DNA of 50,345 nt from an uncultured Lachnospiraceae bacterium. GTDB taxonomy: Bacteria > Bacillota > Clostridia > Lachnospirales > Lachnospiraceae. Position 1 is the stretch's first letter. Each line of letters begins with the position of its first letter. Location of the stretch: contig CACYXH010000068.1 of the NCBI GenBank assembly GCA_902778245.1, positions 1 through 50,345 on the forward strand. Reading direction: 5' to 3'. Of this stretch, positions 2,276 to 13,626 are shown one piece after another. Under the pieces are notes generated by a model. The model searched no databases and had not been told where the DNA came from. It worked only from the letters and a program-made list of their open reading frames with translations. The position numbers and the translations under genes are program-made.

Positions 2276-3505
2276 CTAAAACAAAATATTAATAAATTGA
2301 GTCGCCAGCACCACGCAGATCAAAGCAAAGGGATAGGTGGCTGCGTACGCGGATGCCACTTCCTCGGAACCGGCCACTGAGATCAAGGTTCCCAGAGCAG
2401 GGGTGCTGGTCATGCCCCCGGTGATGGCAGACAGGGCGTTGAGCAGATTGAGCTTCAGCACCTTTACAGCGAAGAAATAACCAATGACCATGGAAAGCGT
2501 AGTGATCAGAAAACCGTACACAAAGTAGATCACCTGGAAATTCTCCACAAATCTCGCTCCTCCGGAAACGCCGGCGCCGATCAGGAACAGCACCAGTCCG
2601 AACTCACGGAACACCTTCAACATCGATGTGGGCGGCATGATGTTCAGCTTGCCGATACGTCCAAAATGGCCGAATACCAGGGCAGTCAGAAGACAACCGC
2701 CTGTGGTAGTCAGGGAAAATGTAGTGCCGGAAAGTCCCTTACCGGTCAATGGGATCTTGATCATGCCCACCAGGATTCCGATGCAGGCACACAATGCAAA
2801 GACCCCGATGCCAAACACATCCAGTTCGAAGGGTTTTCCTTCCTTCTTTTTTCTTTTGGTGCCGGTTTCTACCGATGTGATCTTCTTCAGCTCCTCCGGT
2901 ATATTTGCTTTCAGAAGTTTCGGAACCAGCTGTACAAACAGAACAACACCGATCACTCCGTAAATGTACGCAATACCGTATCCTACGGATACGATATCCT
3001 CATACCCCTCCGTGACTGTCGCCTTTGCGGCAGAGAATGCCGGCGTAGACGTCATGGCTCCGGAGAAGAGTCCCACCACCATGGCCGTCAGCCGGTTTGA
3101 ATCTGCTTCGCCCAGCGCCCGTCCGATCAATATGCAGAGTACCGATACGAGAGCCCCACTGAAAATAATGACTGCTCCAAGCAGAACGTAGGATTTAAAG
3201 TTCTTTCTGATGTTGCTGAAAAACTTTGGTCCCGCAATAAACCCGACGGTGGAGACAAACATGATAAGGCCCACGTTCTCTATTACTTTCAGCGAATCCT
3301 TCGTGAACTCACCCATCTGCCCTTCCAGTCTGCCGTAAAACAGGCATCCATATATGAGCGCTACAATAAAAACTCCCGCAGTACCCAGATCCACACCCTT
3401 GATATTGATGCGTCCCAGCGCGTATCCAATAAAGATGATCGCAAACACACAGAATAACATATAAGTGATTCCGGTGACTGTGATCACCCCGCCAAACAAA
3501 TTCAT
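2276..3505 (-). CDS. AspT/YidE-type (AAE family) antiporter, probable dicarboxylate or succinate exporter
   Basis: A 409-residue membrane protein with about 10-11 hydrophobic helices and the internal duplication typical of the aspartate:alanine exchanger family: GAMTSTPAF near residue 149 and GGMTSTPAL near residue 363 are the paired signature motifs. A charged cytoplasmic loop (ETGTKRKKKEGK) separates the halves. Family members exchange aspartate for alanine (AspT) or export succinate (SucE of Corynebacterium). The gene begins 27 bases after the fumarate reductase flavoprotein and is the last gene of the fumarate block, so export of succinate or exchange of a C4 dicarboxylate is the likely job. 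Both N- and C-termini appear complete. Substrate is inferred from context, not from sequence. Confidence 0.8.
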   Translation of the reverse strand: MNLFGGVITVTGITYMLFCVFAIIFIGYALGRINIKGVDLGTAGVFIVALIYGCLFYGRLEGQMGEFTKDSLKVIENVGLIMFVSTVGFIAGPKFFSNIRKNFKSYVLLGAVIIFSGALVSVLCILIGRALGEADSNRLTAMVVGLFSGAMTSTPAFSAAKATVTEGYEDIVSVGYGIAYIYGVIGVVLFVQLVPKLLKANIPEELKKITSVETGTKRKKKEGKPFELDVFGIGVFALCACIGILVGMIKIPLTGKGLSGTTFSLTTTGGCLLTALVFGHFGRIGKLNIMPPTSMLKVFREFGLVLFLIGAGVSGGARFVENFQVIYFVYGFLITTLSMVIGYFFAVKVLKLNLLNALSAITGGMTSTPALGTLISVAGSEEVASAYAATYPFALICVVLATQFINILF

Positions 3506-3532
3506 TTTTTCATCCTCCTCATTTTTTCCTCT

Positions 3533-12218: not shown

Positions 12219-12295
12219 CGTTTTATCCTCTCATTCTCAGTTTCTATACGATTTCTTTGCCTTTCAAGCCGCGCATGGAGCGCGCCTCAAATTAT

Positions 12296-13626
12296 TTAAG
12301 CCATTTCCTCCGGATGGAATACCTTGTCGAATTCTTCCTCCGTGAGGAAACCGAGTTTCACGCACGCTTCTTTCAGGGATACGTTCTCCTCGTATGCCAG
12401 ATGCGCGGTCTTCGCGGCGTTCTCATATCCGATGTACGGGTTCAGTCCCGATCTGCCTCAATTCCCACCACACAGTTAACTGTGAAGGAAATGATGGACT
12501 CCGCCAGAAGCCTTGCAGACTGCAGGAAATTGTACGCTATCACCGGCATAAATACATTCAGTTCAAAATTACCCTGGGATGCCCCCATTCCGATGGCGGT
12601 GTCATTGCCCATTACCTGGACGGCGACCATCGTCACCTGCTCGCACTGGGTCGGATTTACCTTGCCCGGCATGATGGATGATCCCGGCTCATTCTCAGGA
12701 ATGCGGATCTCTCCAAGGCCGTCCCTCGGGCCGGAAGCCAGCCAGCGCACATCGTTGGCGATCTTCATCATATCTGCAGCCAGGGCTTTCACTGCGCCGT
12801 GAGCAAACACGATCTCATCTTTGCTGGTCAGCGCGTGGAACTTATTCTCCGCAGTCCGGAAGTCTTTTCCGGTGATCTGCGCCACCTGCTGTGCCACTTT
12901 CTCATCAAAGCCCTTAGGCGCATTCAGCCCGGTTCCTACTGCGGTGCCGCCAAGCGCCAGTTCTTTCAACGGTGCCAGAGAGAGCCGTATCAGCTCCATG
13001 TCCCGTTCCACCGAACTTCTCCATCCGCTGATCTCCTGGGAGAAGCGGATCGGAACCGCATCCTGCAGATGAGTCCTTCCGGATTTGACCACATCAGCGT
13101 TCTCCGCCTCCAGACGTTTCAGTTCGTCTACCAGACCCTGCGCTGCCGGAAGCAGTTTATCCTCCAGCACCAGTACAGCTGAAATGTGCATTGCCGTGGG
13201 GAACGTGTCGTTGGAAGACTGGCTCATATTGATATCATCATTGGGATGGCAGAGTTTTTCTCCCGCGATCTCATTGGCGCGGTTGGCAATTACCTCGTTG
13301 GCGTTCATGTTGGACTGAGTACCCGACCCTGTCTGCCATACCACCAGCGGAAAATGATCGTTCAATTTCCCTTCGATCACCTCATCACACGCCGCAGAAA
13401 TAACATCCAGTTTCCGGTCTGTCATCTTCTCTGGCTTCAACTCATGGTTTGCCAGGGCTGCCGCCTTTTTCAGGACGCCGAACGCATGTGTGATTTCCCT
13501 CGGCATTGTCTCAATTCCAACACCGATCTTAAAATTTTCGTGACTTCTCTGTGTCTGAGCTGCCCAGTACCGGTCCGCAGGTACCCGCACTTCGCCCATT
13601 GAGTCATGCTCTACACGATAATCCAT
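12296..13626 (-). pseudogene. fumC: Class II fumarase (fumC) with C-terminal deletion and frameshift
   Basis: Class II fumarase interconverts malate and fumarate and would feed the reductase downstream. The start is at 13626 (MDYRVEHDSMG, AAAGGAGG upstream). Substrate and catalytic segments are intact: TGSGTQSNMN, SSNDTFPTAMH, GRTHLQDAVP and the SS-loop GSSIMPGKVNP. The open frame ends at 12442 right after VVGIEADRD. In another frame from about 12448 to 12296 the normal C-terminal domain resumes (GLNPYIGYENAAKTA ... HPEEMA, stop). About 15-16 residues (IAQLLERSLMLVTA-like segment of the family) are missing at the join, which reads CGGGACTGAAC. The truncated product would keep the active site but lose the small C-terminal domain, so activity or stability is doubtful. 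It could be a real lesion or an assembly error. Confidence 0.85.

What the first reader, a model, noticed from the sequence alone, without database searches (positions are those of the whole stretch)
2276..13626. Hdr-Flx-Tfr fumarate reduction locus: a possible soluble, electron-bifurcating succinate pathway
Ten same-strand genes link fumarase, HdrB-HdrC-HdrA, MvhD-like, Flx-like NAD(P)H oxidoreductase proteins, TfrB-like and TfrA-like fumarate reductase, and an AspT/SucE-type antiporter. Seen: gene order, overlaps (ATGA, TGATG), the Cys motifs. Known: Hdr-Flx complexes oxidise NADH and can pair a downhill and an uphill reaction at HdrA; fumarate is a good electron acceptor. Inference: NADH (via Flx) reduces fumarate (via HdrB and TfrAB) together with ferredoxin reduction, with no membrane anchor or quinone. 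I know of Hdr-Flx complexes and of TfrAB separately, but I am not aware of a described complex of all of them with antiporter and fumarase.
Basis: partly seen in the sequence, partly recalled or inferred. Interest (0 to 1): 0.93.

Follow-up and report, generated by a model that had tools for sequence, protein, structure and literature searches.

The report
NADH-driven, ferredoxin-coupled fumarate reductase operon
This stretch carries a gene cluster, already reported from another succinate-making bacterium and found here in many gut Clostridia and Treponema, whose proteins are predicted to reduce fumarate to succinate with NADH and likely charge ferredoxin at the same time without a membrane; in this particular assembly two of its reading frames are damaged.

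Summary
The gene string is real: fumC, hdrBCA, flxDCBA, tfrBA and an AspT-type antiporter, minus strand, 13626-2276. The novelty claim fails: the same order ("succinate operon"), with ferredoxin coupling proposed, is in print for Pseudoclostridium thermosuccinogenes (PMC7282089, citing a 2019 preprint), and an Hdr-Flx/TfrAB complex was proposed for tubeworm symbionts (PMC6315080). Added here: TfrB in 54 of 391 sampled genomes of the class; FlxA abuts TfrB in 119 of 119 loci; two unrelated fumarase types sit beside the string; DsrC, ComA and MenB pass their cut-offs in 0 of 64 carrier genomes. TfrB lacks the CCG domain of methanogen TfrB while HdrB keeps all ten cysteines, so I favour HdrB as a direct wire into TfrB, like SdhE of E-type fumarate reductases. 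Against a simple energy story, Rnf is rarer in carriers (29 of 54) than in non-carriers (261 of 337). The window's copy has deletions relative to a sister genome that put fumC out of frame and fuse flxB to flxA, losing a cluster motif; decay or assembly fault is undecided. Verdict: new member of a known kind.

The parts
12442..13626 (-). fumC, class II fumarase, out of frame near its end
   Evidence: frame break; 46-nt deletion relative to L061 near 12447
12296..12447 (-). out-of-frame remainder of fumC (last 50 codons)
   Evidence: translation in the other frame
11424..12218 (-). hdrB, two CCG motifs, ten cysteines
11032..11427 (-). hdrC, two 4Fe-4S motifs
9019..11019 (-). hdrA, FAD domain, inserted and C-terminal ferredoxin regions
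8585..9028 (-). flxD (MvhD/FlpD family); start placed at the ATG of MQMND
7623..8600 (-). flxC, 4Fe-4S protein; start placed by comparison with L061
5863..7626 (-). flxB-flxA fused in this copy; second FlxB cluster motif missing
5176..5850 (-). tfrB, one 2Fe-2S and eight further cluster cysteines, no CCG domain
3533..5155 (-). tfrA, fumarate reductase flavoprotein with extra N-terminal stretch of about 85 residues
2276..3505 (-). AspT-type antiporter, two Asp-Al_Ex domains; succinate export inferred
6709..6710 (.). place of the 113-nt deletion relative to L061
12254..12255 (.). place of a 23-nt deletion relative to L061, between fumC and hdrB

Best explanation
This is a member of the already reported Flx-Hdr/fumarate reductase 'succinate operon', whose products would likely form one soluble complex that oxidises NADH and is predicted to split its electrons between fumarate and ferredoxin. 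Inferred path: NADH gives a hydride to FlxA; electrons run through FlxB, FlxC and FlxD to the FAD of HdrA; one branch leaves through the inserted ferredoxin domain of HdrA to ferredoxin; the other goes HdrA to HdrC to HdrB to TfrB to TfrA, which reduces fumarate. I propose that HdrB is a direct wire into TfrB, the role SdhE has in E-type (SdhABE) fumarate reductases, so that no dissolved thiol, DsrC or quinone is needed. Fumarase (with a malate dehydrogenase-like gene in many relatives) would supply fumarate and the AspT-type carrier would export succinate. Likely net reaction: 2 NADH + fumarate + oxidised ferredoxin to 2 NAD+ + succinate + reduced ferredoxin, about -49 kJ/mol with -320 and +33 mV (PMC5861303) and a recalled -420 mV for ferredoxin. 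Shown: genes, order, motifs, co-occurrence, absences. Inferred: complex, direction, bifurcation, transport. The window's own copy may not work as assembled.
For: FlxA directly upstream of TfrB in 119 of 119 and TfrA downstream in 120 of 120 loci, the rearranged L079 left out of both. FumC in 79 of 98 loci with HdrB; of the other 19, 11 have an unrelated class I fumarase alpha gene nearby. HdrA aligns over its length with HdrA of the solved HdrABC-MvhAGD complex (5odc_A, 700 bits); both ferredoxin regions kept in 101 of 101, HdrB ten cysteines in 97 of 97, TfrB eight cysteines in 120 of 120. TfrB has no CCG domain in 10 of 10 scanned. HdrB matches the HdrB and SdhE models about equally, 14 of 14. 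TfrA catalytic motifs in 113-114 of 115; model fits fumarate reductases. FlpD and TfrB coincide: 53 of 59 FlpD genomes. Carriers over cut-off in 64 genomes: DsrC 0 (51), ComA 0 (52), MenB 0 (49); FeFe hydrogenase 62 (47) as a possible ferredoxin outlet. Four FlpD clusters without TfrB have the HdrC-HdrA-FlxDCBA core but no HdrB match.
Against: No biochemistry here, and none found in the ten paper searches. RnfC is in 29 of 54 TfrB carriers against 261 of 337 non-carriers, and PF00346 in 5 of 64, so an energy gain from the ferredoxin is not general. The GGG-x-AG flavin motif of HdrA is found in 97 of 101 and the 2Fe-2S pattern of TfrB in 116 of 120. HdrB clusters could still handle an unknown thiol. 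Most family scores are below curated equivalog cut-offs. PF02621 passes its cut-off weakly in 7 of 64 genomes, the window's own included. HdrB without TfrAB is known in other bacteria (recalled).
Confidence: 0.6

Rival explanations
1. Shuttle: Hdr-Flx reduces a dissolved disulfide (DsrC or a small thiol), and TfrAB separately takes electrons from that thiol, as methanogen thiol:fumarate reductase does.
For: HdrB keeps its full cluster motifs. A DsrC-like route is named as an alternative for tubeworm symbionts (PMC11636981, passages).
Against: DsrC and ComA over cut-off in 0 of 64 carriers; TfrB lacks the CCG domain.
Confidence: 0.17
2. Plain NADH:fumarate reductase: the same wiring, but without bifurcation; ferredoxin is not reduced.
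For: NADH to fumarate is strongly downhill by itself; Rnf is less common in carriers than in non-carriers.
Against: The HdrA ferredoxin regions are kept in 101 of 101; FlxA alone could otherwise serve TfrB without HdrA.
Confidence: 0.15
3. Decay: the window's copy is a real, broken operon in this strain and does not make a working complex.
For: Four deletions of 106, 46, 23 and 113 nt relative to L061 within 14.8 kb, three of them out of frame in genes; the other indels are 13 and 1 nt extra and 1 nt missing.
Against: The other operon frames are open and 96% identical in DNA overall; the genome is a 180-contig draft, so an assembly fault is about as likely.
Confidence: 0.35

Closest known systems
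'Succinate operon' of Pseudoclostridium thermosuccinogenes (PMC7282089; passages seen; 2019 preprint seen by title only)
   Same: Fumarate hydratase, Flx-Hdr complex, fumarate reductase, putative succinate transporter, as listed by consecutive locus tags in that paper.
   Different: There the Flx-Hdr block spans tags RS03360-30, which I read as seven genes; here flxB and flxA are fused and fumC is broken. No sequence of that operon was compared.
flxABCD-hdrABC interspersed with tfrAB and korABCD in tubeworm symbionts and Thioflavicoccus (PMC6315080, passages)
   Same: Hdr-Flx next to TfrAB; a direct complex proposed there.
   Different: Sits in a reverse TCA cluster with 2-oxoglutarate:ferredoxin oxidoreductase; here a fermentative succinate branch.
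E-type fumarate reductase SdhABE of Wolinella (PMC2680327, passages)
   Same: Eight-cysteine pattern in the Fe-S subunit and a ten-cysteine HdrB-like partner.
   Different: That one is membrane-associated and uses methylmenaquinol; here HdrC-HdrA-Flx is the donor side.
Methanogen thiol:fumarate reductase TfrAB
   Same: Flavoprotein and N-terminal Fe-S parts.
   Different: TfrB here is 224 aa without the CCG part (model 488 positions).
HdrABC-MvhAGD (5odc) and MetFV-Hdr clusters of acetogens
   Same: HdrA-HdrC-FlpD core with FAD and ferredoxin domains.
   Different: Donor is Flx instead of hydrogenase; acceptor head is fumarate reductase instead of heterodisulfide or methylene-tetrahydrofolate.

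Membership tests
Flx-Hdr/fumarate reductase succinate operon | fumarase, HdrBCA, Flx, TfrBA, transporter in one string | tested here: met
   compared with the gene list in PMC7282089
Flx-Hdr/fumarate reductase succinate operon | all genes intact in this copy | tested here: not met
   fumC frame break, flxB-flxA fusion; intact in L061
Flx-Hdr/fumarate reductase succinate operon | NADH-dependent, ferredoxin-coupled fumarate reduction | not testable with these tools
   needs enzymology; not shown in the passages of PMC7282089 I saw
Methanogen thiol:fumarate reductase (TfrAB) | CCG (HdrB-like) C-terminal part in TfrB | tested here: not met
   none in 10 of 10 TfrB
E-type SdhABE fumarate reductase | Fe-S subunit with eight cysteines for two 4Fe-4S clusters | tested here: met
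   120 of 120; criterion from PMC2680327
E-type SdhABE fumarate reductase | ten-cysteine SdhE/HdrB-like partner | tested here: met
   97 of 97; SdhE model matched by 14 of 14, below its curated cut-off for the window's HdrB
E-type SdhABE fumarate reductase | quinol as electron donor | tested here: inconclusive
   MenB over cut-off 0 of 64; PF02621 weakly over in 7 of 64; no other quinone genes searched
Bifurcating HdrABC | HdrA with FAD and inserted plus C-terminal ferredoxin regions | tested here: met
   (ferredoxin regions 101 of 101, flavin motif 97 of 101)
Bifurcating HdrABC | CoM-S-S-CoB as substrate | tested here: inconclusive
   ComA over cut-off 0 of 64; other coenzyme M routes not searched
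Classical quinol:fumarate reductase | membrane anchor genes beside the reductase | tested here: not met
   none among the ten proteins scanned; rest of the genome not searched
AspT/SucE antiporters | two Asp-Al_Ex domains | tested here: met
   below the AspT equivalog cut-offs; substrate not testable

The most novel reading that the evidence does not exclude
HdrC-HdrA-FlxDCBA is an exchangeable NADH-bifurcating chassis whose high-potential head is swapped between bacteria: HdrB-TfrBA for fumarate, MetFV for methylene-tetrahydrofolate. In the fumarate head HdrB is an SdhE-like wire whose noncubane clusters carry electrons without disulfide chemistry, giving a soluble, quinone-free E-type fumarate reductase that many gut Clostridia and Treponema use to make succinate and reduced ferredoxin together.
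Probability: 0.42. Interest if true: 0.66.

Novelty: new member of a known kind. Interest (0 to 1): 0.42.

Why it matters
Succinate is a major gut and rumen product, and carriers of this operon show no MenB over its cut-off (0 of 64). A soluble, ferredoxin-charging fumarate reductase would change the energy and hydrogen budget assigned to these bacteria and would give noncubane clusters a role outside disulfide reduction. With TfrB in 54 of 391 genomes sampled from the class it is a common route, testable in a cultured host.

Tried and rejected
Rejected: that the arrangement is undescribed. Rejected: that the flxB-flxA fusion is a feature of the system; the window is the only fused case among 120 loci judged, and a 113-nt deletion explains it. 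Considered and not supported: Rnf as the general outlet for ferredoxin (29 of 54 carriers, 261 of 337 others); an Ech-type outlet (PF00346 in 5 of 64). PF02621 matches in 10 of 64 genomes (7 over cut-off, 27-34 bits against 26) I read as related binding proteins, untested. MenB matched 4 of 64 below cut-off, DsrC 1 and ComA 1 of 64 below cut-off.

Led nowhere: searching solved structures with the TfrB profile gave general ferredoxin-type and weak complex II matches. The TfrA model is fair (mean pLDDT 75.7); the fold comparison spanned residues 68-522, so the N-terminal stretch was not tested for a known fold. The 2019 preprint is not held; only its title was seen. Two further paper searches gave PMC7282089 alone or nothing.

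24 of 121 loci lack the full HdrB-TfrA string; L079 is rearranged, and the rest were not each checked for contig ends. Rnf counts were read by me from the list.

Full report
Observation. Family scans agree: class II fumarase, HdrB (two CCG stretches), HdrC, HdrA, FlpD/MvhD, an Fe-S FlxC, a HydB/AsrA plus HydG type NAD(P)H oxidoreductase, TfrB-like, TfrA-like, and an Asp-Al_Ex antiporter. Most scores lie below curated equivalog cut-offs, so the names are family-level. FlpD occurs once in the genome.

Damage in this copy. Against the nearest genome (G011, locus L061; 96.05% identical over 14,816 aligned bases) the window lacks 106, 46, 23 and 113 nt near 14738, 12447, 12255 and 6710; the other indels are 13 nt and 1 nt extra and 1 nt missing near 2030-2230. 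The 46-nt loss puts fumC out of frame. The 113-nt loss fuses flxB to flxA and removes the second FlxB 4Fe-4S motif, kept in 114 of 115 FlxB sequences with the window as the miss; Fer4_22 is matched over 1-69 of 95 here and 1-94 of 95 in L061. The 106-nt loss breaks a neighbouring gene that I read as nagA, a name not tested by a scan. Decay or a fault of the 180-contig draft: I cannot tell.

Conservation. TfrB at E <= 1e-30 occurs in 54 of 391 genomes sampled from the class, own genome included. Among 61 relatives, own included, 11 have a match above 340 bits, and the next best match is 36.3 bits. In the window plus 120 loci, FlxA is directly upstream of TfrB in 119 of 119 and TfrA directly downstream in 120 of 120; the rearranged L079 was left out of both, and L177 begins with TfrB. 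The whole HdrB to TfrA string is present in 97 of 121.

Electron path. HdrA aligns over its length with HdrA of the solved complex (5odc_A, 700 bits); both ferredoxin regions are kept in 101 of 101 and the flavin motif in 97 of 101. PMC5861303 (passages) gives HdrA there as the only flavin site and the ferredoxin-binding subunit, and HdrC as the link to HdrB. HdrB keeps all ten cysteines in 97 of 97 (alignment). TfrB has eight cluster cysteines, invariant in ten aligned sequences and present in 120 of 120; its 2Fe-2S pattern is found in 116 of 120; it has no CCG domain in 10 of 10 scanned, whereas the methanogen TfrB model runs 488 positions and its latter part weakly matches our HdrB. PMC2680327 (passages) names this pair of features, a second 4Fe-4S cluster in SdhB and a ten-cysteine SdhE related to heterodisulfide reductase, for E-type enzymes. 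HdrB matches the HdrB and SdhE models about equally (148.5 and 143.2 bits for the window; 14 of 14 match both). I infer that HdrB passes electrons straight to TfrB.

Other carriers. In the 64 carrier genomes (11, own included, plus 53 others), over cut-off: DsrC 0, ComA 0, MenB 0, PF02621 7, weakly, own genome among them, FeFe hydrogenase 62, PF00346 5. RnfC (E <= 1e-60) is in 29 of 54 TfrB carriers and 261 of 337 other genomes: carriers have it less often, which speaks against a general ferredoxin-to-Rnf gain. The window's own genome has RnfC.

Natural control. FlpD occurs in 59 of the 391 genomes, 53 of them with TfrB; one TfrB genome, G130, lacks FlpD. Of the six FlpD genomes without TfrB, one (L192) is a 5.3-kb contig with HdrA-FlxD-FlxC-FlxB 52-78% identical to the window's, probably a cut-off copy of this operon. 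Four (L189, L191, L193, L194; three genera) show HdrC-HdrA-FlxDCBA beside genes of the MetFV and formate ligase kind, with no HdrB match at E <= 1e-5; only L194 was confirmed by Pfam (seven proteins, no CCG), the others I judged by likeness to it. One (L190) has HdrA-FlpD with a FAD-linked oxidase and CCG proteins. So in this small sample HdrB goes with TfrBA and not with the core, though HdrB without TfrAB is known elsewhere (recalled).

Literature. PMC7282089 (abstract, outline, passages; [quoted passage not shown] PMC6315080 and PMC11636981 (passages) propose Hdr-Flx delivery to TfrAB in tubeworm symbionts, directly or by ferredoxin and a DsrC-like protein. Enzymology of the complex did not appear in the listings, which cover open-licence PMC papers only. 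I did not see the HdrB-as-SdhE reading there, but the preprint could hold it.

Verdict. A real, conserved, coherent operon of a kind already in print; a new member, damaged as assembled here. Distribution, fumarase replacement, carrier absences and the head-swap control sharpen the mechanism without proving it.

Noticed in passing
window 13891-14954, minus strand: A gene read as nagA (N-acetylglucosamine-6-phosphate deacetylase; name recalled) is split by a 106-nt deletion near 14738; in L061 (609-1778) it is one 389-aa frame.
   Followed up: partly
window 3536-5155, residues 1-85 of TfrA: An N-terminal stretch absent from the aligned part of FrdA/SdhA is conserved across 16 aligned TfrA sequences: a candidate docking part, not tested.
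   Followed up: partly
L189, L191, L193, L194: HdrC, a long HdrA and FlxDCBA beside genes of the MetFV and formate ligase kind, without an HdrB match.
   Followed up: partly
L190:2860-9655: HdrA and FlpD beside a FAD-linked oxidase and two CCG plus ferredoxin-type proteins: another possible acceptor head.
   Followed up: partly
L066:12309-13619: A DASS/CitMHS-type anion transporter follows TfrA where others have the AspT-type gene.
   Followed up: yes
L099, L106, L167: Two HdrA matches (L099, L106) or two TfrA matches (L106, L167) in one string; duplication or broken frames.
   Followed up: no
window 490-2035, minus strand: Two frames downstream of the operon look like a BlaR1/MecR1-type sensor protease and a BlaI/MecI-type repressor (read by eye, not scanned).
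   Followed up: no
L175: A record titled Bacteroidaceae carries the operon at 74% TfrB identity, possibly a mis-binned contig.
   Followed up: no
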